Source: a virus. From it: a stretch of DNA of 50,894 nt. The first letter of the stretch is position 1. Each line of letters begins with the position of its first letter. The stretch covers positions 1 to 50,894 of the IMG/VR virus record IMGVR_UViG_3300031784_001757. One strand, written 5' to 3'. Below, piece by piece: positions 11,790-32,200 of this stretch. A program made the translations under genes and the position numbers. Under the pieces are notes generated by a model. That model made no database searches and was not told the DNA's origin. It was given only the letters and a program-made list of their open reading frames with translations.

Positions 11790-12568
11790 AATTCGTTTGC
11801 ATCCGCTACATAAAAAGATATATCTTTAATTTGTCCCAAATGAATTGCCAGTGTTTTCATTGGCATTAGTATTTTAACATCTTGTTGTTGCCATATATGA
11901 CTAATAGTATTACCTTCCCAATATCCATCTATTGTTCCTATGTCTAATAATGAATAGAAATTTTCTTTATACTTTTTAAACAGTGATACTGGAATCATAA
12001 ACGATTCATGCGTAAACCATGTTGTCCTATAATATCTATCAGGACCTGGCAATACTAAACATTCTCTTACATATGTATCATTAAATTCATTAAATGGATG
12101 ATAATATAATTGAGTAAAATCTTGTGGGAATATGCCAATTGAAACGTCAGGTGCGGTTATCTGTTGAAAATAGTCATATGCCTCTATCATCTTACTAATA
12201 GTATCAGTATAGTGCAAGTAATCATCTTCTACCAAATAAACCAACTCATCATCGGGTAGTTGACTAATATAGTCTAATGCTATTTTTAAACTATATCTAG
12301 ATTTTTGTTTTATGTCTTTGAATGTAATGGATGGGTCTATTACAACATCATGAACTGATGCACCTTCATAAAACTCATGCACAAACTGTTTTGTTTCTAC
12401 TGAAGAATCATCATCTATTACATGTAAGCTAAAGGCCTGACCGTAATGAGTTAATGAAGTTACTAGTGATTTATAGCACCGTTTTACACAATCATCTTTT
12501 TGAACAATACGATTACTTGCTATTGAGGCTTTATCACATGTTCTTAGTACTACATTCAACTTTTGCAT
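11765..12568 (-). CDS. Glycosyltransferase, GT2-like
   Basis: A 267-aa GT-A fold transferase. The first strand and loop are LNVVLRTCDKAS, followed by the nucleotide-binding LHVIDDDSSVET segment (about residues 48-59) and a second acidic motif LVYLVEDDYLHY (about 109-120), which fits the DxD/EDD metal site of family 2. Later histidines and tryptophans (HIWQQQ, AIHLGQI) are consistent with a small phage transferase. It is translationally coupled on both sides: one-base overlap with the kinase-nucleotidylyltransferase gene (TAATG) and 25-base overlap with glf. It may transfer galactofuranose made by Glf, but the acceptor and sugar cannot be told from sequence. Confidence 0.7.
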   Translation of the reverse strand: MQKLNVVLRTCDKASIASNRIVQKDDCVKRCYKSLVTSLTHYGQAFSLHVIDDDSSVETKQFVHEFYEGASVHDVVIDPSITFKDIKQKSRYSLKIALDYISQLPDDELVYLVEDDYLHYTDTISKMIEAYDYFQQITAPDVSIGIFPQDFTQLYYHPFNEFNDTYVRECLVLPGPDRYYRTTWFTHESFMIPVSLFKKYKENFYSLLDIGTIDGYWEGNTISHIWQQQDVKILMPMKTLAIHLGQIKDISFYVADANELWEQNKIS

Positions 12569-13362
12569 TACTTCAAGCCTAAGATTTTACGAATACCTGT
12601 AGCACTGATAGCATGGGTTTTTTCATCAAATATTTCTTGTTCAATCTTATAACCAACATCACGCCCGTACGTAATATTGACGATGTTTGGTACAACTTGA
12701 ATCTCATATTGCCCTTGATACAATGGATCCAAATCACGTTTAATAAATGACTTAACCTTTTCTATTTCAAATGGGTTACTACCTTGCCAGCCCTGACAGT
12801 CACGAATTTGAATAACAACTTGACCTGTTTTAGCAATAGCACGTTCAAACAAAGCACGATGACCTTCGTGCCATGGCTGCCAACGACCTAACATTTGTAC
12901 AGTTTCTTTTTTCCAGTCAAATGTGGGTCTACGCCTATTGTCATGTAGATGTGCAAAAATGAATTCACTCCATTTTTCACTGTTTTGTTCTGTGATGCGA
13001 AAGTCATATACTTCAGGCTGGATAAATGCTTTGTTGGTATCTTCGTATCTACCTTCTTTAATTGTATCAACCCATATAGTCCAATCAGCTTTGAAATTAT
13101 TACGCATCTCAACTAGTGGTGCAACAAAATCACATATTACATACTCTATGTCAGTCATTGCATCTGCTAGTTCACGCATACGCAAGCTTTGACGTATACG
13201 TCCTTCTTTGCTAAAGTCCCAATCATTATATTTTTTACGTACATCATCGGCATTGAGCCAAGCTACACGTTTGTTAGTTGTTTGTAGATGCCCAAGTAAA
13301 TGTTGAGCCAGATGAGTTTTGCCTGAGCCCGGCAAGCCCATAATAAGAATACGCTGTGTCAT
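12568..13362 (-). CDS. Fusion of APS-kinase-like P-loop kinase and HxGH nucleotidylyltransferase
   Basis: The N-terminal half (1 to about 145) has a P-loop GLPGSGKT at residues 9-16, then VAWLNADDVRKKYNDWDFS and FVAPLVEMRNNF, the layout of adenylylsulfate kinases, which make PAPS from APS. The C-terminal half (about 155-264) is a small nucleotidylyltransferase of the cytidylyltransferase-like superfamily, with GRWQPWHEGH (HxGH at 165-168) and ISATGIRKIL at 252-261. Bifunctional PAPS synthetases join APS kinase to ATP sulfurylase, which also belongs to this superfamily. A compact sulfate-activating enzyme is therefore possible, but NMN- or sugar-type nucleotidyl transfer is equally compatible. 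A sulfotransferase is encoded two genes upstream. Translation start is masked by the hairpin at 13360-13407. Confidence 0.75.
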   Translation of the reverse strand: MTQRILIMGLPGSGKTHLAQHLLGHLQTTNKRVAWLNADDVRKKYNDWDFSKEGRIRQSLRMRELADAMTDIEYVICDFVAPLVEMRNNFKADWTIWVDTIKEGRYEDTNKAFIQPEVYDFRITEQNSEKWSEFIFAHLHDNRRRPTFDWKKETVQMLGRWQPWHEGHRALFERAIAKTGQVVIQIRDCQGWQGSNPFEIEKVKSFIKRDLDPLYQGQYEIQVVPNIVNITYGRDVGYKIEQEIFDEKTHAISATGIRKILGLK

Positions 13363-13407
13363 GTTATCTCCGTTAGATATAAAAATATTTATAACAGAGA
13401 TAACATG
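13360..13407 (-). promoter_or_regulatory. 16-bp stem-loop masking the start of the kinase gene, with a late promoter in its loop
   Basis: In the minus-strand RNA, CAUGUUAUCUCUGUUA (13407-13392) pairs with UAACGGAGAUAACAUG (13375-13360): 16 pairs, one of them G-U, with a 16-base loop. The 3' arm contains both the Shine-Dalgarno GGAG and the AUG start codon of the gene at 12568-13362. The late promoter TATAAATA at 13393-13386 overlaps the end of the 5' arm, so transcription from it should begin near 13380, in the loop. Such transcripts lack the 5' arm and leave the ribosome binding site free, whereas read-through transcripts should be silent. T4 gene e and soc are controlled this way. Confidence 0.72.
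13386..13393 (-). promoter_or_regulatory. T4-type late promoter TATAAATA before the kinase-nucleotidylyltransferase gene
   Basis: Perfect match to the T4 late consensus TATAAATA on the minus strand. With the usual spacing, +1 falls near 13380 and the leader before AUG 13362 is about 18 bases and holds GGAG. It implies a phage-encoded late sigma factor of the gp55 type, which is outside this window. Confidence 0.65.
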
Positions 13408-13417
13408 TCTGTATATT

Positions 13418-13834
13418 TTACATCAATGCGTCAACATCTTCATGTGTGGTTGCGGCATCAATTTCGGCTAATCGTGCTGTTAATGTTGTTTTGGCTGTAG
13501 TTATTGCAGTAATGTCAAATTCTTCAGATGGGTTAGCACTCATTTGAAGTCTCATTTGAGTTTGTACTACCTTTTGGAATTGTTCATTAGCTTGCCCAAC
13601 TAATGTACCTTTACGTTCATCAACACTTAAATCACGTTTACCCCAAACAATTTCTGCTGGAGTTTTAGTAATATCAAAAGTGTGAGTTGTCATAATTTCA
13701 CGGTTAGGTGTTAGGTCAGGAGTAACCTCAACTGCTTCACGCCATCCATCTTGTCCTACGGGAGGTGTAGTGTCCCAGCATTCTACTACTGCATCGGCTA
13801 CTATTTTTACCCAATATCCTGTTTTAATTGCCAT
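13418..13834 (-). CDS. Small probable tail-associated protein, 138 aa
   Basis: A protein starting MAIKTGYWVKIVADAVVECW with TTPPVGQDGWREAVEVTP, then a helical C-terminal half with LSVDERKGTL and an acidic end. The N-terminal strand-rich part with Trp, Pro and Gly, followed by helices with Arg/Asp, resembles the tail-fibre-associated and assembly-chaperone-like proteins in this window (33396-33905, 40763-41116), so a tail role is plausible. It lies between the kinase-nucleotidylyltransferase and the sulfotransferase fusion, so it could also belong to the glycan island. AAAGGA precedes ATG 13834, and a late promoter lies 57 bases upstream inside the end of the preceding gene. Confidence 0.55.
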   Translation of the reverse strand: MAIKTGYWVKIVADAVVECWDTTPPVGQDGWREAVEVTPDLTPNREIMTTHTFDITKTPAEIVWGKRDLSVDERKGTLVGQANEQFQKVVQTQMRLQMSANPSEEFDITAITTAKTTLTARLAEIDAATTHEDVDALM

Positions 13835-13855
13835 ATTAATGTTCCTTTGTAGTAT

Positions 13856-15643
13856 TTATTCTTCATCTAAGTGAGTTTCAGCAATAAATTTATTTATATC
13901 TGTATTGATGTCAGTAAAGACGGTTGTCCAATCTCCAAAAGTTTTTTGTCTATATAATCGTACACAACCATACCATTCAGTTGTATTACCGGGTTTAGCC
14001 CATAGATAGTATGGTAGGATAGGTACTATAATCCAAGTTGATACACCCATTGAAGCTGACAAATGTGCTATACTAGTACAAGAAGATATAACCAAATCAC
14101 ATGTACTGATTGCATAAGCTGTCTCTTCCCAGTGACTTAACGGAACTTCATTAATCCATTGTGGTCTATGTTCTGAACCCAAATCACGTTGTAATGATAT
14201 AAATTCTACATCATCATTCTTAATTGCTTCAAAGAAGGGATTTGGTGGAAATATCCTATGTTGTTCATGTTCAAAGTCTGGGTTACCTTGCCAACGCACA
14301 CCTATACGTAATTTCTTACCGTGTTTATTTCTAGTTCTAATGATATATGGATTGCCGTCGACATTTTTATATTCCATACCTAAGAACACAGGTGCAGACA
14401 TACTAGGTAACCAGAAGTCGTGTACTACCCCAAATATAGCTTCGTGTTGAATTACTGCCACTACCCCCTTAACATTACGGAATAGTGTTGCAAGTTGTCC
14501 TGAGCAAGCTACAATAACTTCACATCCTCTATCAGCTATTTCTCTAGCAAATCTAACAGAATGAATTTGATCGCCTAATCCACCCTCAAGGTTTAGTAGT
14601 ACAGTTCCTTTACTGAAACCATCCCATAACGGCATAGGTGATTTAGGTGGTTCGTTACCAAATACTTTTTCTAATCTGCCGCGATACAACAGTTTATGAC
14701 CTTCTAGTAAATTGCCCTTCCACATCTCATACCAACCACGATTAAAAGCAGCACGATTATTCCAAGGTTCTTCTATTGCTAGCTTTTCCCCTATCTTGTT
14801 TCCTTCTTCAAAATTACCTACTATACCAGCCGCCAGTTGCAAATCTAAATCATGTATTGGACGACTGTTCGGTCCTTCTCCTAACCAGAATCTTGGTTGT
14901 ACAAAATCTCTGTGATGTCTACCCAGCACTTGTTCTGCTTTTTGATTATGCTGTTTAGCTAATATAGGTTGAATGTCATGCAGACCTTTGACTTCCCAAA
15001 CTTCTTCATCACGTTCTCGTAGACCTGTACCATCGATATTATTAAAATCATATCCATCAAAATCAGATAGTTCTAAGAAGTCATGTATTCTTTTTAATTG
15101 TTTTTTTGGATTGTTAATTAAGTCATCGTAATCAACAAACAGAATACATTCAGGTGCAAATCTATATCCAGACTCTAATAATTGATATGATTCTTTTATA
15201 TGTTTAACCAAGTAGTCATTATGTATAAAGTCATTAATATCAGTTGGTTTAGCGACACGTACCATACTTGCTACACAATCAGGTACGTTTCTTACTGTAG
15301 CGATAATTTTTGGTTTATGCCCTAGAACTTGAGCCATAGTAGGGATGTTTACTGGGCTTACCCAGCCACGTGCTTTATCTAGTATAATTGGTTTATTGAT
15401 ATGAATATATTTTTCTTCGCAGATAGTTCTTAGAATTCGTTGAATTTCTTTTTTTTGATCTACTGTATCTTTAGTAGATGATTTGACTGGTAGAGAATCT
15501 GCCCAAGCACGTAGAGTACCAATCAACATGTCTAGTAACCCACTAGTAGAAGATGCATGGATATCAGGATGTTGATTTAGAATTCCAGCTAAAACAGTTG
15601 AACCACTTCGAGGTAGACCGGAAAGAAAGTATATATTTTTCAT
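13856..15643 (-). CDS. Sulfotransferase fused to GT9-like glycosyltransferase
   Basis: A 595-aa fusion. Residues 1 to about 240 form a PAPS-dependent sulfotransferase: FLSGLPRSGSTVLAG (7-21) is the 5'-phosphosulfate loop, and IIATVRNVPDCVASMVR (113-129), with Arg118 and Ser126, is the 3'-phosphate site. Residues 301 onward begin FNRGWYEMWKGNLLEG, a TPR-like stretch, then a GT-B domain with LLNLEGGLGDQIHSVRF (350-366) and LVISSCTSIAHLSASMG, as in heptosyltransferase-like GT9 proteins. The same two segments occur in the 573-aa protein at 18410. It could add a sugar and then sulfate it. The ATG lacks an obvious Shine-Dalgarno sequence. Confidence 0.8.
   Translation of the reverse strand: MKNIYFLSGLPRSGSTVLAGILNQHPDIHASSTSGLLDMLIGTLRAWADSLPVKSSTKDTVDQKKEIQRILRTICEEKYIHINKPIILDKARGWVSPVNIPTMAQVLGHKPKIIATVRNVPDCVASMVRVAKPTDINDFIHNDYLVKHIKESYQLLESGYRFAPECILFVDYDDLINNPKKQLKRIHDFLELSDFDGYDFNNIDGTGLRERDEEVWEVKGLHDIQPILAKQHNQKAEQVLGRHHRDFVQPRFWLGEGPNSRPIHDLDLQLAAGIVGNFEEGNKIGEKLAIEEPWNNRAAFNRGWYEMWKGNLLEGHKLLYRGRLEKVFGNEPPKSPMPLWDGFSKGTVLLNLEGGLGDQIHSVRFAREIADRGCEVIVACSGQLATLFRNVKGVVAVIQHEAIFGVVHDFWLPSMSAPVFLGMEYKNVDGNPYIIRTRNKHGKKLRIGVRWQGNPDFEHEQHRIFPPNPFFEAIKNDDVEFISLQRDLGSEHRPQWINEVPLSHWEETAYAISTCDLVISSCTSIAHLSASMGVSTWIIVPILPYYLWAKPGNTTEWYGCVRLYRQKTFGDWTTVFTDINTDINKFIAETHLDEE
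13891..13898 (-). promoter_or_regulatory. T4-type late promoter TATAAATA inside the end of the sulfotransferase gene
   Basis: Perfect TATAAATA on the minus strand, 57 bases before the ATG of the 138-aa gene at 13834. A start near 13885 gives a leader of about 50 bases ending in AAAGGA. Its position inside the upstream coding end is common for phage late promoters. Confidence 0.5.
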
Positions 15644-17710: not shown

Positions 17711-18426
17711 GTTACAAGTTTGTCGTTGCGTTCAGTAGTTCTACCGGTCAATGGTCTAGCAAGAATAGTTGTGTCTGTTGTTACATTAATATTTTTATCA
17801 TAAGCAAACATGCCCTGATGTGTAATGTTGAACAAGTCTGCTCTCATCATAATATCTAATGGAGCACAAATTCCCATCTTCAATACATGAGCAATCAAGT
17901 TCTTTGCCATTAACGGATCGATTGCATATGCATGGGCACGACAGATAAACAGATAGTTAGGGCCTTCACTAGCATGCGGTGGAATAGTTGGATGTATTCC
18001 CCAGCCTTGCTCTGCCCATTCAGCACCACCTAGATAGCATATTGAGTTTACTGAATCATATGATGTAAACTTTTTAGTCATAATGCTATCATGTTCAAGT
18101 ATAACAATAGGCTTATCGATCTTAGCACAATGAATCCACAAGCTGATATGACTTAATGCACAAGCAACTTCACCTCTAGTTAAGTAGTGGTCAGTAATCT
18201 TTAGCATTTTAATAACTGAATCACCTACACTATGATCGGGTACTGTGATTTCAGGGCCAATGCCATTAAAGGCATCCCACACTTTATATTGCATACCTGC
18301 ATTCATACAACTGAGTTGACATCGTTTAGAATACCTCTCAGAAGATTCATTACCTTTTACAGTAATGATGTAAGCGTGTTCTACTTCAAAATCACGCTTG
18401 TAAAATAAATTAAGATTTGTGTCCAT
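17707..18426 (-). CDS. Glycosyltransferase, GT25-like
   Basis: A 239-aa protein resembling family 25 (lipooligosaccharide-type) transferases. It has an N-terminal AYIITVKGNESSERYSKR segment, as in the I-N-L-x-R-x-x-x-R start of the family, LTRGEVACALSHISLW (about residues 81-96), and PIVILEHDSIMT (about 104-115). In most GT25 proteins the last motif reads L-E-D-D, so LEHD is a variant at the metal site; activity may be altered or the second acid may come from elsewhere. The C-terminal half with CAPLDIMM matches the conserved P-x-D region. It overlaps the 573-aa fusion gene upstream by 17 bases. Confidence 0.7.
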   Translation of the reverse strand: MDTNLNLFYKRDFEVEHAYIITVKGNESSERYSKRCQLSCMNAGMQYKVWDAFNGIGPEITVPDHSVGDSVIKMLKITDHYLTRGEVACALSHISLWIHCAKIDKPIVILEHDSIMTKKFTSYDSVNSICYLGGAEWAEQGWGIHPTIPPHASEGPNYLFICRAHAYAIDPLMAKNLIAHVLKMGICAPLDIMMRADLFNITHQGMFAYDKNINVTTDTTILARPLTGRTTERNDKLVT

Positions 18427-20131
18427 CTAGTGCCCGTTTAAATTCAGTATAGTCGATACGACCTGGTTTATGTACTTGAATTAACATTCTAGTTGATAAT
18501 GCTACATTATTCAAGTGATTTAGGGCATGATTAAGTTCTTCTTGGGTGATGGTACCATTTGATAGGCGTTGTTGATATGGGTCAGTGTATTCAAACTGGA
18601 CATCACATACTTCAATATCAATGTCTTCTTCAAATGCTAGTAATGAATCACTTTCACCTTTATTTGCTTTTTCAAACATATGACGTTTGTTAAACAAGTT
18701 AAACATAGCAACCGTAATTAAACGTTTGTGTGTTGGGTCATCTAATGCTGTATCGCATCTCCAATGTGGTGTTTGTATTTCCCAAACAGCACCGTTCTCG
18801 CTTACACGATATAGTTCTTTAATAACATCAATAAAGTCTCTACCAGTCTCACCCAGATGTTCTAAAATATCTTTAGCAACAACGTGTGAGTATTCATTGT
18901 CTTTCCACGGCCAGGGTAGAACGCTTAAATCAACATGTTCATCTGCATCAATGAATGTTGATTTGTCAACGTTAACAAAACCATCAAACTTTTTAAAGCC
19001 ACAACCTAAGTTTAGTTTCTTAGTGATACGATCTTCATCTGGTTGATCGATATGTTTCAAGTTGAAACGTGCTTCTAGTGCAGTATAAAGACTTTGAAAT
19101 GTTGGGTTCCATTTCTTAGGATCGGTTTGTCTAAAGATTTGTACGCACTTATAGTATGGACTTGTGTTAGAATCAGGTGAACCAGATGTCCAAGTATGGT
19201 ATGGAAGAATAGGAACGATGACCCATGTTTCTTTACCCATTGCGGCTGCTAAGTGTGCAACGCTAGTACAAGATGAGATAACAATATCCATGTTAGCAAT
19301 AGCTGCCATTGTATCTTCCCAACTTAACAAGAAATGTTGCAAGTCAGTTACATTCTCTGGCAATTGAATAATGTTATGATCCTTTTGCAAGCTATAAATT
19401 TGTAGTTCATCATACTTTGTTAAGTTAGTAATAAAGTTCTCTGGGAACTTTCTAAATTGTTGATGTTCAAACTTTGGATTACCCGCCCAACGAATACCAA
19501 CTTTAATCTTTTCACTATTGACAAATGTTTTCCAAATTTCTGTACTATCTGGTTTAGCAGTTAAGTATGGACCATTAGGAAAGTCTGAGAACTCATGACC
19601 GGCTACCCAACCGGCACTAAAGCCCGGTACCCAAAAGTCATGAGGTACTGTATGTGCTTGATTGCGTAGTATAACTTGATCCACACCTTCAATACGTTCA
19701 AATACAGAAACTAGTTCAGGGGCACATGCAATGTATACTGCCTTTGCACCTTGCTTCTTAAAGCTAGTTGCAAAACGTGCGTGAATGATTTCATCTCCGT
19801 AACCACCTTCTAGTGATACAATGATAGATTTATTATTGATAGAATGTTTTTCTGGGTTAAAGATTGGTGCATCTGTTTTCAGAGGAGGGCTACCATATAC
19901 ATTTAAGAAACGTCCGTTCTCTAGTAATTGACAACCTTTTTTATAATCACCATCTTGAATTAAGAACCAGCCGCGGTTGAAGCAATGTCGCATCCAAATA
20001 TCTTCAGTATTAACTCCTTTAGCATCTAGTATTTTTTTAGGGCCTATGTTTTCTAATTTGTCTGAAAGCTGTCTGGCCTCTTGATGTTTACCTTCCAATT
20101 GAAGTTTGAGCATCATGTCTATTTCGTGCAT
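18410..20131 (-). CDS. GT9-like glycosyltransferase fused to a SAM methyltransferase
   Basis: A 573-aa fusion with three parts. Residues 1-100 are TPR-like (FNRGWFLIQDGDYKKG at 51-66). Residues 103-355 are a GT-B, heptosyltransferase-like domain with VSLEGGYGDEIIHARF and IVISSCTSVAHLAAAMG. Residues 372 to about 520 are a methyltransferase with KLNLGCGFKKFDGFVNVD and VVAKDILEHLG. The transferase part is a clear paralogue of the C-terminal half of the 595-aa protein at 13856, in which the extra domain is an N-terminal sulfotransferase. The protein should act on a surface glycan. GGAG sits before ATG 20131, and a late promoter lies 63 bases upstream, so this is the first gene of the glycan island. 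Confidence 0.82.
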   Translation of the reverse strand: MHEIDMMLKLQLEGKHQEARQLSDKLENIGPKKILDAKGVNTEDIWMRHCFNRGWFLIQDGDYKKGCQLLENGRFLNVYGSPPLKTDAPIFNPEKHSINNKSIIVSLEGGYGDEIIHARFATSFKKQGAKAVYIACAPELVSVFERIEGVDQVILRNQAHTVPHDFWVPGFSAGWVAGHEFSDFPNGPYLTAKPDSTEIWKTFVNSEKIKVGIRWAGNPKFEHQQFRKFPENFITNLTKYDELQIYSLQKDHNIIQLPENVTDLQHFLLSWEDTMAAIANMDIVISSCTSVAHLAAAMGKETWVIVPILPYHTWTSGSPDSNTSPYYKCVQIFRQTDPKKWNPTFQSLYTALEARFNLKHIDQPDEDRITKKLNLGCGFKKFDGFVNVDKSTFIDADEHVDLSVLPWPWKDNEYSHVVAKDILEHLGETGRDFIDVIKELYRVSENGAVWEIQTPHWRCDTALDDPTHKRLITVAMFNLFNKRHMFEKANKGESDSLLAFEEDIDIEVCDVQFEYTDPYQQRLSNGTITQEELNHALNHLNNVALSTRMLIQVHKPGRIDYTEFKRALDGHKS

Positions 20132-20170: not shown

Positions 20171-20208
20171 TTTTGTCTATAAAACTGTAAAGTTATTTAT
20201 AGACAAAA
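20171..20208 (-). promoter_or_regulatory. 13-bp perfect inverted repeat carrying a late promoter
   Basis: TTTTGTCTATAAA (20171-20183) and TTTATAGACAAAA (20196-20208) are exact inverse copies with a 12-base spacer. It is the only notable feature in the 94-base gap between the RCC1 gene and the 573-aa gene. On the minus strand the 5' arm overlaps TATAAATA, so late transcripts should begin in the loop near 20188 and lack the 5' arm. Read-through RNA from the giant gene could fold here. There is no T-run after the stem, so it is not a classic terminator. Confidence 0.55.
20194..20201 (-). promoter_or_regulatory. T4-type late promoter TATAAATA before the glycan island
   Basis: Perfect consensus on the minus strand, 63 bases before ATG 20131. 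It would start the first gene of the glycan operon separately from the giant upstream gene. Confidence 0.6.
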
Positions 20209-20225
20209 CACTAGGTTGATTAATT

Positions 20226-23200
20226 TTACTTAGTAATACCGAAGTGGTTGTAACCATTTGATACTGTGCCAGCAGATATACCTACTGCAGTAATTATAGG
20301 TCTTATTGGACGGTTGTCATTGAATCCCCATTCATATAATACATTGTTAGGATCAACTAACAATGTATTATTAAAGTTAGCTGATACTTGTGTCCAAGAT
20401 GATGAGCCAATTTGAGTAGGTATACTGTACATATTAGGTGGTACAAGTGATTGATTATTACCTATTTGTACCGGGCTTGATCTACTAATTCTATCGTTCA
20501 CCCCAAGCTGTCCACTATTATTTAGACCCCATGTAGCCATTTTACCATCAACTATAATCAATCCTTGACTTGCATTATTACTAACGGATAATATTGGACT
20601 AACATAAGTACCTATTTGCACAGGGGCACTACGGGGTACCTGATCACCTAATCCAAGTTGACCACTAGCATTAATACCCCAACCAAATAAGTAACCATCA
20701 CTACGTATACCTAATTGATATCCGTTTTGCGTTGAAATATTAGTCCAGCTATCAGATGTTGTAGGTAAGAATACTGGACTTAAGGCAGGTAATACGGAAT
20801 AAATACCTAATTGACCTGTATTATTTCTTCCCCATGTGTACAATCCATATAATAAATCAAGACCTGTAGTAGAGTCGCGGCCGGCTGATACCATAGCCCA
20901 ACTACTTGTACCAATTTGTACTGGACTACTACGATTTGAAGTATTAGCATCACCTATTTGTCCGTTTGAATTCAGTCCCCATGCAAATAACAATTTATCA
21001 CTGCGTATTCCTGCCGTATGATTAAAACCAGAACTAACAGATGTCCAGCTAAATGCACCAAGTTGTACAGGGCTACTACGCCAACTTATATCATTTAATC
21101 CTAGCTCGCCAGAATTGTTTCCTCCCCAAACGTACAATAGTCCAGTTGAGGTAATTGCGGCTGCGTGGCTCCATCCTGCTGAAATAACACTCCAGCTACT
21201 ACTACCGATCTGTACCGGACTACTTCTAGATAATTGTGCATTATCACCTATTTGACCATTAGTACCTAGACCCCACATAAACAATGCGCCATCACTTCTT
21301 ATGGCTCCACGTCCTCTATTAGAAATACTGAGCCATGTACTACCCGTTGCAATTTGCACTGGACTATTTCTGGATATTACATTATTTTGTGCTAACTCAC
21401 CATTTGTGTTTGCTCCCCAAGCAAATAGTCTATTAGTAGCATCAAGAGCCAAAAAGGTAGCAAGACCAAGTGTTGATGCTACTGCTATCCAACTACTTGT
21501 ACCAACTTGTACTGGACTACTTCTGTTAACTGAATCACCTAATCCCAGTTGACCTACTGCATTATCACCCCAACTCCATAATGTACCATCACTACGTATT
21601 GCAGCCATTGATGAAGTGCCGACAGATACCTGAGTCCAACTACTTGTACCAACTTGTACTGGACTACTACGATGTACTAGGTCATTTAAACCTAGCTCGC
21701 CAGAATTGTTTTGGCCCCACATAAATAGCGCACCATCACTACGAATGGCTGCACTTGTAAGGCTATTTATATTAACTTGACTCCAGCTAAACGCAGCTGG
21801 TTTACTTGTATTGGTTAAGTAAGTTTGTTGTATTTGGGCACTAGTAAATGAGTTAACTTGTACAGGGCTACTTCTATGAATTACTGATCTATCACCTAGT
21901 TGACCATTAGAGTTGCCACCCCAAGTAAACAATAAATTGTTTGAATTAATAGCTCCTACGGTAGAACCACCTGCACTAACCATAGTCCAGCTTGCACCAA
22001 TTTGTACTGGACTACTTCTACTTAATTGTGCATTATCACCTATTTGACCAGTAGTACCTAGACCCCATACAAACAATCTCTTGTCTACTGTCAATGCTGT
22101 GTTGTAAGAGTTACCGGCACTAACTTGTGACCAGCTACTTGTACCAATTTGAATAGGTACTGATTTACTAATAATAGTATTATCACCTAATTGACCATTA
22201 GTACCTAATCCCCAAGCCCATAGTGTATTATCACTACGTATGCCAATTGTTGTGGCTGCACCTGCACTAATTGCATTCCATGATTCAGTTACCGATCGGA
22301 CAAACATCGGGCTACTTCTAGCTCCTATTGTTTCACCTAATCCAAGTTGTCCACTAGAATTTTGACCCCAAATATAAAGTTGTTTATTTGTAAATGAGAT
22401 TGCCATAATTACTCCAGGATTAGTTCCTGAACTAACTTTTGACCAGGTGCTTGTACCAATTTGTACAGGACTACTACGATGCACTGTATCATTTAATCCT
22501 AATTGACCGTTAGTATTAAGTCCCCAAGCCCATAATGTGTTATCCGCTTTTATAGCAGAAGTTGACCAAGCTGAGCCAGCAGATACACTTGTCCAACTAC
22601 TTGTACCAACTTGTACCGGGACAAGCGCACTGGAGGAGTTGCCGGTGCCAAGAGCGCCAAACACGCCAAAACCACAAGCCCATAGCGAGCCGGTGGTTTT
22701 TATAGCCATAAAATATCCTGCACCAGACGAGACTTGTTGCCAATTAGTATCAGTACCAACTTGTACTGGGCTACTGCGTGGGATACCAGACTGATTTTGA
22801 CCGAGCGCGCCGGATGCCGCATCTCCCCAAGACCATAATGTTCCATCTAAGCGTATGCCGTACATATTTGTACTGCCATCTGGGCTGCCTGCACTGATTT
22901 GGGACCAGCTACTTGTACCAACTTGTACAGGACTACTACGATTTATTGTATCATTTAAACCTAATTGACCAGTAGCGTTATTTCCCCAACTAAATAATGC
23001 ACCATCAATACGTAAGGCGGCTGCTATTCCAGTTCCTGCATTAGTACTTCCAGTTCCTCCTGAAATCATAGTCCAGCTACTTGTACCAACTTGCACTGGA
23101 CTACTGCGATGTTCTCGGTCATTTAAACCAAGCTGTCCATTGACATTAGCTCCCCAACTCCATAACGTGTTGTCTATACGAATTGCATAGGTTGCTCCAT

Positions 23201-26200
23201 TACCGACAGATACCTGAGTCCAACTACTTGTACCAACTTGTACCGGGCTATACACAGCAGTAATAGAATTTAGCCCTAATTGACCATAATTATTCAGACC
23301 CCATATAAATAACGCACCATCATTACGTATTGCTGCCAATGTTCCGAGATTGCCGCTTGCACTAATTTGTGTCCAACTAAACCCAGTTTTACCTGTATTA
23401 GTAAGATATGTTTGTTGTATTTGTTCAGTAGTAAACGTACTAATTTGTACAGGGCTACTACGATTAGCAATAGTACCCAATCCTAGCTGGCCTGATCCGC
23501 CTGCTCCCCAACCATATAATAAGTTATCAGAAGATATACCAAATGTAGTAAGGTCTGTAGTAGTTGTTATACCACCTGCACTAATTTGTGTCCAACTACT
23601 TGTACCAACTTGTATCGGGATACTACGATGTAATGTATTATTTGAACCCAAATTACCATCATCATTATCACCCCACGTGAACAATAAGCCATCACTACGA
23701 ATAGCTGCCACATGACCGGCAGATGCTGTTGCTTTAGTCCAACTATATGCAGTAAATGTATTGGCAGCTGTATTACCCCAACCATACAATTTGTTATTTG
23801 TCTGTATACCTACATTATGATAATAACCTGCACTAATTTTACTCCACGCATCAGTACCGATCTTTTTAGGCATTGAAACGTAACTTGCAATTTGTACTGG
23901 GCTACTACGATGTAGCATATCATTTAAACCCAATTGCCCAGAGTTATTGTCACCCCATCCATATAATAATATATTCCCATCATGTGTACCAATGGTAGAA
24001 GTGCTGCCAGCAGAGATAAAAGACCAACTACTAGTACTTATTAATGTTGGAGTACTACGATTCACTGTATCATTTAAACCTAATTGACCATAGCCATTAT
24101 TTCCCCATGCATATAATAATTTGTTACTTGTTCTACCAACCATAAACGAAGTACCAACTGATATTTGAGACCAACTACTAATGCCAACTTGTACTGGAAT
24201 ACTTCTGGAAAAAACAGTATTGTTACCCAATTGACCGCTACTATTAGCTCCCCACGTGAACAATAAGCCATCACTACGAATTGCTGCCGATGCGTAAAGA
24301 CCTTGCATTGATATTTGGTTCCAAGAATCATTCGCAGTACGGATGAAAACTGGGCTACTACGATTTATTGAATCATTTAAACCAAGTTGTCCGATATTGT
24401 TATTTCCCCAACTAAATAGTTGTTTGCTAGTATTTTCTATAGCTACTATATGGTCAGCTAGTCCATTAATGTTGAACCAACTACTTGTGCCAACTTGTAC
24501 AGGACTACTACGATGTATCCTATCATTTAAACCTAATTGACCGTTAGTATTACTACCCCACGCCCACAATGTATTGTCGCTTCGTATGGCTAGTGTCTGA
24601 AGTACTCCTGAAGCAACTGATGTCCAGCTACTTGTGCCAACTTGCACTGGACTACTTCTGTTAAAAATATCATTTAAACCAAGTTGTCCGGTAGTGTTAA
24701 GTCCCCAAGTCCATAAATTATTATTAGACGATATTGCTGCCATAGCCGATTGACCAACTGACACTTGAGTCCAGCTACTTGTACCTATTTGAGTTGGACT
24801 ACTACGATGTATCCTATCATTTAATCCTAGTTTTCCATCAGCATTACTGCCCCATGTAAACAATATACCATTGATACTCAATGCAGCGGTAGCACCATTA
24901 TTAGCTCTAACTTGAGTCCAGCTACTTGTACCAACTTGCACCGGACTACTTCTGTGTATAATATCATTTAAACCAAGTTGTCCGATATTGTTATTTCCCC
25001 AACTAAATAATGCACCATCACTCCTTATTGCAGACACACAATATTGACCGGCTGCAACAATTGTCCAACTACTAGTACCAATTTGTACAGGACTACTACG
25101 ATTTATTGTATCATTTAAACCAAGTTGTCCGATATTGTTAAGTCCCCAAGTAAATAGTGCACCATCAATGCGTACAGCGTATGCAAATTCTTCTGCTCCG
25201 ACTGACACTTGAGTCCAACTACTTGTACCAATTTGTACTGGGCTAGATTTATTAACTGTAGTAGTGTCTCCTAGACCACCCCAAAAGCCTAAACCCCACA
25301 TAAACAATGCGCCATCACTTCTTATGGCTCCGGTAGTAACAGCCCCACTAGTTCCATTAGCACTTATTGATGTCCAACTATAGGTTGATGATCCTGTATT
25401 TGTTAAGTATGTATTTTGTTGTTCAAGGGTGGTTATTGATGTGACTTGCACTGGACTAGATATATTATTGCTGTTTGATCCGATACCCAATTGTCCATTT
25501 GTATTGTTACCCCAAGCCCAAAGTGTACCGTCACTTTTTATGGCACTTACTCCGTAGGATGACCAACGACTATCAATCATTATCCAGCTGCTTGTACCAA
25601 CTTGTACAGGACTACTTCTGTTAAATCCACTTGTGGGCGCATTTATGCCTAACTGTCCGTAAAGATTAGTACCCCAAGTCCATAAACTACCATCATTGCG
25701 TATAGCACCGTTTCCACCTACTATAGTCCATGAATTATCTGTACCAATTTGGGTTGGACTACTACGATGTATCCTATCATTTAAACCCAGGTTTCCATTA
25801 GTATTAAGTCCCCAAGCCCATAATGTACCATCACTACGTATTGCAGTAGTCCAAGATTCGGCAGTATTAACCATAGACCAGCTACTTGTACCAACTTGCA
25901 CTGGACTACTTCTGTTAAAAATATCATTTAAACCAAGTTGTCCGATATTGTTAAGTCCCCAAGTCCATAATGTACCATCACTTTTTATACCAGTAAATTT
26001 ACTACTTTCATTAGTTAAACTAGTCCATGACGATGTGATATCATTAGTTAATAGATAGTTAGTTAACGTTTGTAAACTATCATAAACCCATGGTTGATAT
26101 TGCAATCCCCAACCATATAGTGAGTTATCAGATGCAATAGCTAGTGAGTGTACATTACCTGCACTGATTTGTGACCAACTGCTACTACCAATTTGTGTTG

Positions 26201-29200
26201 GACTACTACGATTTGAGCCGCTATTATCTACTTGATATGAACTATTGTTACCCCAACCAAATAATTGATTAGTACTAGTTAATGCAAGAACGTGATTTAC
26301 ACCTGCACTAACTTGTGACCAACTACTAGCACCAATTTGTGTTGGGCTATTTATGTATGGTGTTGCACCAAGTTGTACAGGACTACTACGAGGTTCTAAC
26401 CAACTACCTGATATAGTTACAGGGTTAAACGGTATACCTAATTGGCCATAATCATTGGCACCCCAGAAATATGCTCTACCATCAGTAGTGATACCACCGA
26501 CTGTTCCAGCGCCGGCATTAACAACAACCCAATTACTTGTACCTACTAGTACTGGGGTACTACGATGTACCTGATCACCTAATCCGAGTTGTCCACCAGT
26601 ATTAAATCCCCAAGTAAATAGTTTTCCATCGGATCTAACAGCGGTTGACATCGACATTCCAGCACCAACACTTATCCAAGAATCATTCATTGAGCGAATG
26701 AATACCGGGCTACTTCTGCTTGTTAAGTTTAATGTACCTAACTCACCGATAGTACCGTTACCCCAAGTAAACAATGCGTTACCTGTATCGGCTGCAGTAA
26801 TACCTAACACGTTAGTAAGGCCAGTTACCATTGTCCAGCTAGTTGAACCAATTTGTAAAGGTGTTAATTTAGAAGTATTAGTACCATCACCGAATGTTCC
26901 ATATGTATTGTTACCCCATGCAAATAGTAAACCATCACTTCGTATTGCCAAAAACCCCATAACAATTAAACCAATTGTAGTCCAAGAATCTGCTACTGAA
27001 CGAATAAATACTGGGCTGGATCTAGAAACAAGAAAACCGTTACCCATTTGACCATTGGAATTGCTGCCCCAAGTAAACAGTTGTCTATTTTGATCAAGTG
27101 CGGTTATCGCAGTACCTGCATTAACGGTAGTCCAACTACCTGTACCTGTAGTAAGAGTAGGGCTATAATAATAAGTTGCTCCTAAGCTATCACCCATTTG
27201 GCCTGCGGTGCCCAAGCCCCACATATATAGTAAATTATTACTTATACCAGCTGTGATTGTACTTGCAGTTACTACACTCCAACTACTTGTACCAATTTGT
27301 ACTGGACTACTACGATGTTGTGTAGAATCCGGAGTTCCTAACACACCATTAGTACCTGCACCCCATGTGAATAATGAGCCTCCACTACGTATAGCTACTG
27401 TCCATGAGGCACCAGATGCTACTTGAGTCCAACTACTTGTACCAATTTGTACTGGGTTACTACGATGTTGAGTAGTACCATCACCTAGTTGTCCAAATGT
27501 GTTTACTCCCCATGCATATAGTGCACCAGTTGTACGTATAGCAGTACTTACATTACCTGCAAAATAAACTTTTGACCATGTGTTTTCAGTACCAATTTGT
27601 ACTGGGCTACTACGATGTATCCTATCATTTAATCCCAGTTGACCTAAATCATTAAAACCCCAACTCCATAATGTACCATCATTACGAACACCTAATATTG
27701 TACCGCCGGATGCGTAGTAGTTAGGGCCTGTTGCAACAGCAGTCCAGATGCTTGCACCAATTTGTGTTGGACTACTACGATGTATCCTATCATTTAATCC
27801 CAGTTGACCTGAATCATTAGAACCCCAACTCCATAATGTACCATCACTACGTATTGCAGCCGTTGTTCGTTCAAATGTTGCTACTGTCAACCAACTACTT
27901 GTACCAACCTGTACAGGACTACTTCTGCTTTGTACATCATTTAGTCCTAATCCACCATAAAATCCTTGGCCCCATGCAAACAATAATCCGTCATTACGAA
28001 TAGCAAACGTTGTATCTTGATTAGTTACTACAGTAGACCAACTGTAGCCAGTCTTACCTGTTTTTGTCAAATATGCCTGTTGTTCTGCAGGTGAAGTGAA
28101 CGAAACAATTTGTACAGGGCTTGTTCGTGCATTAATAGATGAATCACCCAATGCGCCGCCTGATTGTTGACCCCAAGTGAACAATGCACCATCACTACGT
28201 ATAGCACCAGTTGCGGTGGCATTCACACCTACGGCCACAGTAGTCCAATTACTTGTACCAATTTGTACTGGGCTACTACGATGTTGAGTAGTACCATCAC
28301 CTAGTTGACTGGCGCCGCCATACCCCCATGCAAATAATTTACTATCAGTTCGTATTGCAAGTGTGGTATTAATTTCTGCTGACACCAGTGTCCAACTGTT
28401 ACCTGTACCTACTTGTACTGGGCTACTTCTAGCAATAATATCGTTTACTCCAAGCTGACCATAATTATTCAGACCCCAACCATATAACTTACCATCCAGT
28501 GTAATAGCAAAGGTAGATGTAGCAATCCCCCCTATAGATGGCACAAATGACCAACTACTTGAACCAATTTGAACTGGACTACTACGATGTACTAGGTCAT
28601 TTAAACCTAATTGACCATTTGTATTGCTTCCCCAAATAAATAACAATCCGTCACTTCTAATAGCGTAAGTATGACTAACACCAGCAGCAATACCACTCCA
28701 ATTACTTGTGCCAACTTGCACCGGACTACTTCTGTGTATAATATCATTTAAACCAAGTTGTCCGGTAGTATTAAGTCCCCATGCAAATAACTTACTATCG
28801 CTACGAATAGCAAATGAATTAGAGTAACCTGCACTTACTTTAGTCCAGCTCAATGTTCTAGGTTTACCTGTACTAGTTGACCAAGCAATTTCATCAGCTA
28901 ATGTAAACAATGATGTTATTATAACAGGGTTTTCGAATATACCTCCACTACCATTTGTACCTAATTGCCCATTGGCATTGTTACCCCAACCATATAAAAC
29001 ATTGTTATTGTCTAACGCAAGAACGTGATTTACACCTGCACTAACTTGTGACCAACTACTAGCACCAATTTGTACTGGACTACTACGATGTACCTGATCA
29101 CCTAATCCGAGTTGTCCACCAGTATTATTTCCCCATGACCATAGTGTTTTATTGTCATGTATTGCTAGTGTAAAATTGACACCTTGTGTAACTTGGTACC

Positions 29201-32200
29201 AATTATGCGTAGTTGCATTTACCTGCACCGGGCTACTAGTATTTACTACACTGTTAATACCTAATTCACCAACTGTATTACCGCCCCATGCATAGATATA
29301 ACCGTTACCATTACTATTGTCTTGTATTATTCCCATGCGTCCAGCAACCATAGTCCAACTACTTGTACCAATTTGTACTGGGCTAGATTTATTAACTGTA
29401 GTAGTGTCTCCTAGACCACCATACGTGTTGTTACCCCATGCAAATAATGCGCCATCACTACGAATTGCAGAGACTACATATGCACTAACAATATTACCAG
29501 ATTGACTTGAACTAACCATAAGCCAACTACTTGTACCAATTTGTACTGGGCTACTTCTATTTGTAGTGTCATTGATACCCAATTGGCCTGTGGAATTATC
29601 TCCCCAAGACCATAATTTATTATTAATATCAATACTAAAAGCGTTACTAAAACCGGCGGCTAACTTCTTCCATTTACCTGTACCAATTTGTACCGGGCTA
29701 CTGCGATGCACGGTGTCATCTTCACCTAATTCTCCTACTGCATTATCACCCCATGACCATAATGTTCCATCTAATCTTATACCATATGAGGATGAGTCTA
29801 ATCCAGCTACTGCAGAAGTCCAAAATAAATTACCAATTTGTACTGGGCTACTGCGAGCCACAACAGTATTATCTCCTACTTGACCAATAGTATTGGCTCC
29901 CCATGCAAACAATCTGCCATCAACAGTAATACCCACAGGAGTAAGATTTCCTGCAGAAATAACATTCCAGAGACTTGTACCAACTTGTACTGGACTACTT
30001 CTAAGTACGGCGGTTGTATTTGCACCTAATGCACCGACTGAATTATCAGATCCCCATGACCAGAGTGTTCTGTCACTACGTATGGCAAACAAAAATCCAC
30101 GTCCAGCACTAAGTGCAGTCCAACTACTTGTACCAACTTGTACTGGACTACTGCGATGTACTAGATTATTTGTACCTAACTGACCATATGTATTACTACC
30201 CCAAGTCCATAAACTACCATTACTTCGTATACCTGCTGCAGTTTGTGTTCCATCTACCGGCGTACTAGAGCCTGATAGATATGTCCAACTTAATAAATCT
30301 TTACCTAACTGTATTGGCTGTGATTTAGATATAATATTGCTGTCTCCTAATACGCCAGAGTCACCTTGACCCCACAACCATAGTGTATTATCATTTCGTA
30401 TACCTGCAATGTGCAATGAATTAGGAGTTCCTATACCTATACCTGTCCAAGAATCATTCATAGAACGAATAAAGACCGGTGATGATCTATGCGTTGTGTT
30501 GTTCTCCCCTAGTTGTCCGTTGGTGCCAGTGCCCCATGTAAATAATTGCCCTGATGAGTCAATACCCACACTAGTTGATCCTCCACCAGGTACTAGACTC
30601 CAACTACTTGTAGTAATTTGTTGGGGAATCGTTGTAGTACCCGGAACTGATCGACCATTTGCGCCATTATTATACAGCCCCCATTTAAATAATAATCCAT
30701 CACTCCGTATAGCAGAGTACAAATCATCACCTGCACTTACGTATGTCCATGAATCTTTACCTGAAATAATGAATACTGGGCTACTACGTGAAATACTATT
30801 ACCTTCGCCTACATATTGTCCAAGGCCCCAAGACCATAACATACCATTACTGTCAATAGCGGCAGCAAATCCACCTACCATATTCCAACTGTTAGCACCA
30901 CCAATACTTACAGGGCTACTAACGTTAATAGTTTGAGCAATATTAGCACCTAATTCTGATTGTCCATTATATCCCCACGCCCATAATGACCCATCTATTC
31001 GTCTTCCGTACATAGCAGGGTAACCACCGTTAACTTGAGACCATAAATTTGTACCAATTTGAACTGGACTACTACGAGATACTATGTCATTTAAACCTAA
31101 TTGGCCATATGTATTATCACCCCAAGTAAATAATCTGTTATCTGAAGTAATACCCGAGCTAGCATTAAGGTAACTGTTTATCATAGTCCAGCTACTTGTG
31201 CCAACTTGTACTGGGCTACTTCTATAAACTTTATCGTTTAATCCCAGTTGTCCGTATGTATTATCACCCCATGTCCATAAACTACCATCATTGCGTATAG
31301 CCAGGGATTGTGATCCTATAGCGGAGACCATGATCCAGCTACTTGTACCAACTTGCACTGGGCTACTACGCCAATTTGTATCATTTAATCCCAATGAACC
31401 GAGACCGTTATATCCCCAGGCCCATAGTGATCCGTTATTTTTAATAGCCAGAGCCTGAAAGCCACCATTAACATGTGTCCAATTATAATCTGTACCAACT
31501 TGTACTGGACTACTTCTATGAACTTTATCGTTTAATCCCAGTTGTCCGTATGTATTATCACCCCATGTCCATAAACTACCATCATTACGAATTGCAAATG
31601 TAGAACCATTGCCTAATATTGCCGTAGTCCAACTACTTGTACCAATTTGTACAGGACTAGACCTGTCGTTAGTGGAGTTTATACCTAGTTGCCCGTAACC
31701 ATTAGAGCCCCAGGCAAATAATTTACCATCATTACGTATAGCTAACTTATTGGCTGAGCCACCATTTATATATACCCAACTAGTTCCAGTTGAACCTATT
31801 GTAGTTAAATATGAATTATATGAAACTGTTAATGGAGATGTTGTTAGTGCAGTAATTTGTACTGGACTACTTCTTGATATACCATAACCATCGCCAATAT
31901 ACGTTCCATGGCCCCATGTGTATAATTCGCCCCCCGTGGTTATTCCCATAGTCATGTTTTTACCACTAGTAATCATAGCCCAACTATCTATACCAATTAG
32001 TACAGGACTAGACCTGCTGATAGTGGAGTTTATACCTAGTTGCCCGTTTGTATTACTACCCCAGGCAAATAACGCACCACTGACAGTTATACCGGCCATC
32101 ATGTCGGTGCCAGCACTAACCATAAGCCAATTACTTGTACCAACTTGTACTGGACTACTACGATGTACCTGATCACCTAATCCGAGTAGTCCACCAGTAT

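What the first reader, a model, noticed from the sequence alone, without database searches (positions are those of the whole stretch)
13360..13407. Late-transcription-gated RNA switch over the start of the kinase-nucleotidylyltransferase gene
A 16-pair stem (one G-U) covers both the Shine-Dalgarno GGAG and the AUG. The perfect late promoter TATAAATA overlaps the 5' arm, and its expected start (about 13380) lies in the loop. Late transcripts therefore lack the masking arm, while read-through RNA from the upstream genes should be blocked. The same logic is established for T4 gene e and a few other T4 genes; I know of no report on a sulfate- or nucleotide-activating gene. It would restrict this enzyme to late infection.
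Basis: partly seen in the sequence, partly recalled or inferred. Interest (0 to 1): 0.75.

Follow-up and report, generated by a model that had tools for sequence, protein, structure and literature searches.

The report
Promoter-embedded hairpin masking a phage gene's start
In an uncultivated T4-like virus of bacteria, the RNA for one enzyme gene should be readable only when it is made from the gene's own late promoter, because longer RNAs fold a 16-pair hairpin over the ribosome landing site; this is the trick known from phage T4's lysis gene, and sequence statistics suggest several other genes in this virus group use it too.

Summary
On the minus strand, 13407-13392 pairs with 13375-13360 (15 Watson-Crick pairs and one G-U). 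The stem covers the Shine-Dalgarno GGAG (13371-13368) and the AUG (13362-13360). TATAAATA (13393-13386) places the expected start at 13380, inside the loop. It is the top inverted repeat listed in the window; fold z = -5.7. Opening the start site costs about 15.4 kcal/mol in read-through RNA and 2.8 in the predicted late RNA. T4 genes e, 49 and I-TevII give 13-15 versus 0.4-4 in the same kind of calculation.

Relatives encode a gp55-type late sigma factor, and ATAAATA is the most enriched 7-mer before their genes, so the late promoter is credible. Kinase orthologues with this leader keep promoter, spacing and a core helix of about seven pairs over the Shine-Dalgarno, but not the AUG mask.

The device recurs. 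Late-promoter genes pair with their own upstream arm better than with swapped arms; genes without a late promoter do not. Leaders of the baseplate-wedge gene gp6 covary across phages.

"Restricted to late infection" is not shown: the upstream gene has its own late promoter, so the stem may silence any read-through RNA. No experiment was possible.

The parts
13392..13407 (-). 5' (masking) arm of the hairpin, CATGTTATCTCTGTTA
   Evidence: sequence and fold
13376..13391 (-). 16-nt loop, holding most of the late promoter and the expected start site
13360..13375 (-). 3' arm, TAACGGAGATAACATG, containing the Shine-Dalgarno and the AUG
13386..13393 (-). T4-type late promoter octamer TATAAATA
   Evidence: motif class enriched upstream of genes in relatives
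13380..13380 (-). expected late transcription start (+1), six bases after the octamer
   Evidence: inferred from T4 late promoter geometry (general knowledge); not mapped
13368..13371 (-). Shine-Dalgarno GGAG, five bases before the AUG
12568..13362 (-). regulated gene: P-loop (APS-kinase-like) kinase fused to an NMN/cytidylyl-transferase-like domain, 264 aa, phrog_10255
13418..13834 (-). upstream 138-aa gene, no family match; source of read-through RNA (no terminator seen between it and the kinase gene)
13853..13860 (-). AATAAATA, probable late promoter of the upstream gene

Best explanation
A start-site-dependent translation gate of the T4 gene e type. RNA that reads into the kinase-nucleotidylyltransferase gene from upstream folds a 16-pair hairpin that buries the Shine-Dalgarno and the AUG, so ribosomes cannot load. 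RNA started at the late promoter, whose octamer sits at the top of the 5' arm and whose expected start lies in the loop, lacks that arm and is translated. Shown by sequence and computation: the stem, the promoter, their geometry, their partial conservation, and recurrence with covariation on other late-promoter genes of the lineage. Inferred: the start at 13380, the actual block, and the benefit. The consequence I think most likely is that the enzyme is made only from its own gp55-dependent promoter. That means late, and at a level uncoupled from the upstream genes.
For: Hairpin z -5.7 and first in the list of inverted repeats in the window. Opening of Shine-Dalgarno plus AUG: 15.4 kcal/mol in read-through RNA, 2.8 in predicted late RNA. 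T4 positive controls with the same kind of calculation: e 15.4/4.3, gene 49 12.8/3.1, I-TevII 13.1/0.4. ATAAATA is the most enriched 7-mer 15-55 nt before genes in seven contigs (86 seen, 5.1 expected), with a main cluster at about 23-31 nt before the start codon. gp55-type late sigma factor in G003, phrog_12791 E = 1.7e-70, with a near-identical protein in G002. The other kinase loci that carry this promoter leader keep the promoter, TTTTTATATC and a core Shine-Dalgarno helix; predicted chance that GGAG is unpaired in read-through RNA 0.03, and 0.3-0.7 in late RNA. Swap test on 58 distinct late-promoter genes: own arm -7.51 vs swapped -6.33 kcal/mol, z -4.0, 0 of 5000; reversed-arm and downstream controls show none; 198 genes without a late promoter show none (z +0.4). 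Without the kinase and gp6 the effect is weaker but remains (z -2.7, 23 of 5000). gp6 leaders thinned to under 70% identity (n = 24): z -5.8, controls flat.
Against: No transcript or translation data. The core helix does not vary among most kinase orthologues, so there is no compensatory change in this gene itself, and the AUG-covering extension was found in one virus only. Most kinase homologues (L008-L081) sit in other contexts without this leader. The upstream gene also appears to be late, so a timing benefit is unproven. The late RNA itself can form a weak five-pair stem over part of the Shine-Dalgarno (predicted unpaired 0.41).
Confidence: 0.75

Rival explanations
1. The long perfect stem is largely a mutational by-product. 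Template switching within an older quasi-palindrome (TATCTCT..GGAGATA) copied one arm onto the other in this virus, and the 16-pair form has no selected role beyond the short helix.
For: Compared with L002-L007 nearly all leader differences fall in the arms and all increase complementarity, in a leader that is otherwise almost identical. The long form was found only in the window virus. Coding identities are similar between all lineages (82-87%), which makes the window form the likely derived one. Template switching at quasi-palindromes is an established mutation route (general knowledge).
Against: Both outer and inner extensions are present on either side of an unchanged U-G pair, which one copying event does not give simply. 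Even the short form masks the Shine-Dalgarno. Origin by template switching would not exclude the regulatory effect.
Confidence: 0.12
2. The hairpin serves RNA stability or processing of the upstream message (3'-end protection or a nuclease site), and the masking of the start is incidental.
For: It begins 10 nt after the upstream stop codon. A second promoter-embedding hairpin in the window (20208-20171, 13 pairs) does not reach the Shine-Dalgarno of its gene, so such stems can exist without start masking.
Against: No U-run follows, so it is not an intrinsic terminator. The arm placement relative to Shine-Dalgarno and AUG recurs on unrelated genes and covaries with the start region.
Confidence: 0.07
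3. The palindrome is a DNA operator for a protein that controls the late promoter.
For: Inverted repeat overlapping a promoter; I-TevI represses its own late promoter by binding there (PMC2988022).
Against: A 16-nt spacer between arms is long for a dimer site. On gp6 the arms change sequence between phages while pairing with the start region is kept, which is a mark of RNA pairing. No shared operator sequence was seen.
Confidence: 0.05

Closest known systems
T4 gene e (lysozyme) leader
   Same: Late promoter within the region encoding the 5' arm; long upstream-initiated transcripts form a Shine-Dalgarno-masking helix; late RNA lacks the arm; about 100-fold repression reported (PMC3014915). Computed opening energies are close to the window's.
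   Different: Here the gene is a kinase-nucleotidylyltransferase in an uncultivated phage, the stem also covers the whole AUG, there is one late promoter, not two, and no measurement exists. In gene e the blocked RNA is early; here the upstream gene looks late.
Hairpin-gated homing endonuclease genes: T4 I-TevI, I-TevII, I-TevIII, segB; Aeh1 mobE
   Same: Same geometry of late promoter, hairpin and ribosome binding site (PMC2988022); I-TevII reproduced here. GIY-YIG homing endonuclease genes with the same device were also found among the relatives (G002 80137, G003 168255).
   Different: Those are mobile, potentially harmful nucleases inside early or middle units; this is a metabolic or surface-modification type gene among glycosyltransferase and sulfotransferase genes.
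PeSL mobile regulatory cassettes of T4-type phages (early promoter plus stem-loop)
   Same: A promoter with a stem-loop at a module boundary: homology to relatives starts at the upstream stop codon (13420) and the upstream genes differ.
   Different: Late, not early, promoter; no terminator; the stem masks the start codon. The original paper was not available here, so this comparison rests on general knowledge.

Membership tests
T4 gene e-type late-promoter/RBS hairpin switch | RNA helix that sequesters the Shine-Dalgarno and/or AUG in long transcripts | tested here: met
T4 gene e-type late-promoter/RBS hairpin switch | Late promoter placed so that its transcript lacks the 5' arm | tested here: met
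   octamer 13393-13386, expected +1 at 13380 in the loop; start site itself not mapped
T4 gene e-type late-promoter/RBS hairpin switch | Phage uses gp55-type late transcription | tested here: met
   Met in relatives: gp55-type protein and promoter motif enrichment. The window itself is a fragment without that region.
T4 gene e-type late-promoter/RBS hairpin switch | Gene lies on earlier (early or middle) transcripts that must be kept silent | tested here: inconclusive
   No terminator before the gene, but sigma-70-like sites are at chance level and the upstream gene has its own late promoter
T4 gene e-type late-promoter/RBS hairpin switch | Measured repression of upstream-initiated RNA and translation of late RNA | not testable with these tools
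   needs 5' end mapping and reporters
Intrinsic terminator | G+C-rich stem followed by a U-run | tested here: not met
   3' arm is followed by ACACAG; not in the terminator list
Sulfate-activating enzyme (PAPS synthetase type) | APS kinase plus ATP sulfurylase domains | tested here: not met
   N-terminal domain APS-kinase-like (Pfam PF01583, E 1e-11), C-terminal domain matches NMN/cytidylyl-transferases, not ATP sulfurylase

The most novel reading that the evidence does not exclude
In this group of uncultivated T4-like phages, promoter-embedded start-masking hairpins are a general rule for a subset of late genes (baseplate wedge gp6, a tail-fibre-like gene, homing endonucleases, the kinase). 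Translation would be licensed by which promoter made the RNA, not by time, which would decouple the dose of each protein from polycistronic late read-through.
Probability: 0.35. Interest if true: 0.65.

Novelty: new member of a known kind. Interest (0 to 1): 0.5.

Why it matters
It places the T4 gene e logic on a kinase-nucleotidylyltransferase gene, which I know of only from lysis, capsid, recombination and homing-endonuclease genes. It also gives statistical evidence that the logic is recurrent in a lineage known from metagenomes, including covariation on the core baseplate gene gp6. Phage gene order would then under-predict which late genes are expressed together, and transcription data alone would mislead. 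It also makes a specific prediction testable in any cultured relative: read-through RNA of these genes carries few initiating ribosomes.

Tried and rejected
DNA similarity to cultured phages for 12500-14000: no match. Protein search in cultured phages found only homologues at about 40% identity in other phage groups. Genome-wide excess of TATAAATA: none, 5 in the window against 11 expected, and relatives are no higher than the reversed control; the motif is enriched by position, not in total. A guessed PHROG family number for the late sigma factor was wrong and uninformative; a T4 gp55 protein query then found it. The scan for TATAAATATTTTTATATC gave no further kinase leaders beyond those already known. 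The terminator reading was rejected. The T4-wide swap test was too small to be significant (17 genes, z -1.4), and T4 genes without a TATAAATA promoter also deviate slightly (z -2.2), although the known T4 cases are recovered one by one. The swap tests used a simple ORF caller with Shine-Dalgarno-based start choice, so some starts may be wrong.

Full report
What is there. On the minus strand the sequence between the upstream 138-aa gene (stop at 13420-13418) and the kinase gene (ATG at 13362) is TAAAATATACAGACATGTTATCTCTGTTATAAATATTTTTATATCTAACGGAGATAACATG. CATGTTATCTCTGTTA (13407-13392) pairs with TAACGGAGATAACATG (13375-13360) with one G-U. The stem covers GGAG and AUG. TATAAATA is 13393-13386 and the expected +1 is A13380 in the loop. 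Fold energy -21.8 kcal/mol, z -5.7. It is first in the list of inverted repeats of the window.

Is the promoter real? The octamer as such is not over-represented in total. Its position is telling. In seven contigs (the window and six relatives that share the leader), ATAAATA is the most enriched 7-mer in the region 15-55 nt before predicted starts (86 against 5.1 expected), mainly as GATAAATA, with a main cluster at about 23-31 nt before the start codon. Two of the relatives encode near-identical gp55-type late sigma factors; the G003 copy matches phrog_12791, E = 1.7e-70. The kinase promoter, 31 nt before the AUG, fits this class. The start at 13380 is inferred from T4 geometry (general knowledge) and not mapped.

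Energetics. Freeing Shine-Dalgarno and AUG costs 15.4 kcal/mol in a read-through RNA and 2.8 in an RNA that starts at 13380. T4 genes known to be gated this way give 15.4/4.3 (e), 12.8/3.1 (49) and 13.1/0.4 (I-TevII) in a closely similar calculation. The late RNA keeps a weak five-pair stem (UAUCU/AGAUA), so its start is not perfectly open.

Relatives of this gene. The best 80 of 593 related kinase genes were fetched. L002-L007 share the leader; pattern scans added further contigs with it, one of them (L110) the same virus as the window and most of the others with the same short leader type. These leaders keep CTCT..TATAAATATTTTTATATC and a Shine-Dalgarno helix of about seven pairs (TATCTCT/GGAGATA; in L003 a variant with a bulge), while the AUG is mostly exposed (unpaired 0.5-0.7). 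The upstream genes differ between relatives and homology to the window begins at the upstream stop codon, so leader and gene appear to have moved as a unit (inference). The window differs from the others mainly in the arms, where all changes add complementarity. That points to selection for a stronger stem, or to template switching, or both. The other homologues have unrelated upstream DNA.

Recurrence. Among late-promoter genes of the same contigs, several unrelated ones have a start-masking arm next to or overlapping the promoter: a tail-fibre-like gene (G001 7542), a gene of unknown function (G003 330644, 11 pairs), the baseplate wedge gene gp6 (G003 75067, G002 67812), two homing endonuclease genes (G002 80137, G003 168255), and possibly a radical-SAM gene (G002 32208). 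Swap test: own arm -7.51 against -6.33 kcal/mol for arms taken from other genes, z -4.0, n = 58. Reversed arms and downstream segments show no such effect, nor do 198 genes without a late promoter. Removing kinase and gp6 leaves z -2.7. For gp6, 61 unique leaders from different phages give z -7.5, and 24 leaders thinned to under 70% identity give z -5.8, with flat controls. The pairing is kept while the sequence changes, for example TCTCGGTT/AACCGAGA in L257, CTCTTTTC/GAAAAGAG in L259, GTGTTTTC/GAGAACAC in L212. T4's own gene 6 has no such leader.

What it does. The best reading is a start-site-dependent translation gate as in T4 gene e. The time claim needs care. The upstream gene carries its own late promoter (AATAAATA, 13860-13853), another lies at 20202, no terminator stands before the kinase gene, and sigma-70-like sites are at chance level. 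So the blocked RNA may be mostly late read-through. The gate would then set dose and independence rather than time. A ribosome stopping at the upstream UAA should reach about the base of the stem but not open it (inference from footprint size), so translational coupling probably does not relieve the block.

The gene product. Residues 5-92 are APS-kinase-like; residues about 153-225 match NMN adenylyltransferase and cytidylyltransferase families. No ATP sulfurylase match was found. A role in nucleotide-sugar or surface-glycan chemistry, next to sulfotransferase, glycosyltransferase and UDP-galactopyranose mutase genes, is a guess.

Known or new. The mechanism is established for T4 e, soc, 49, I-TevI and others, and for homing endonucleases of T4 and Aeh1 (PMC3014915, PMC2988022). 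The papers that could be searched here showed no report for a kinase-nucleotidylyltransferase gene or for gp6, but subscription journals were not covered. I class it as a new member of a known kind. The part with more weight is the recurrence in the lineage.

Noticed in passing
window 20171-20208, minus strand: A 13-pair perfect stem (TTTTGTCTATAAA / TTTATAGACAAAA) embeds another late promoter (CTATAAATA, 20202-20194), but its 3' arm ends about 30 nt before the Shine-Dalgarno of the 18410-20131 gene. It is neither a start mask nor a terminator; role unknown.
   Followed up: partly
L202-L281, about 60 nt before the gp6-like baseplate wedge gene: Leaders of a core structural gene across many phages combine a GATAAATA late promoter with arms that pair with the start region and covary (thinned z -5.8).
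   Followed up: yes
L104 5292-5322 and L090 2529-2559: Two further viral contigs have the TATCTC-TATAAATA-GAGATA architecture directly before an endonuclease-like gene (one GIY-YIG-like, one HNH-like by eye), as expected from T4 homing endonucleases.
   Followed up: no
L083, L085, L099, L102, L112, L113, L116, L119, L120: A near-identical TATCTCTGTTATAAATACATATATAAGAGATA stem recurs in nine other viral contigs without an obvious gene start behind it; unrelated context, meaning unknown.
   Followed up: no
G002, G003, G004, G005 before MAIEIGPGW/MALVIEGGW genes: A short stem AGTGTGATAAATACACT surrounds the late promoter itself without covering the Shine-Dalgarno; conserved among these paralogues.
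   Followed up: no
window 20226-33392, minus strand: A 4388-aa reading frame whose N-terminus reads like an RCC1-type repeat (by eye), in a run of tail-fibre-like genes.
   Followed up: no
window 13856-15643 and 18410-20131, minus strand: A sulfotransferase-domain protein of 595 aa and a large methyltransferase-like protein lie among glycosyltransferase genes next to the tail fibre region, which suggests virion or host surface modification.
   Followed up: no
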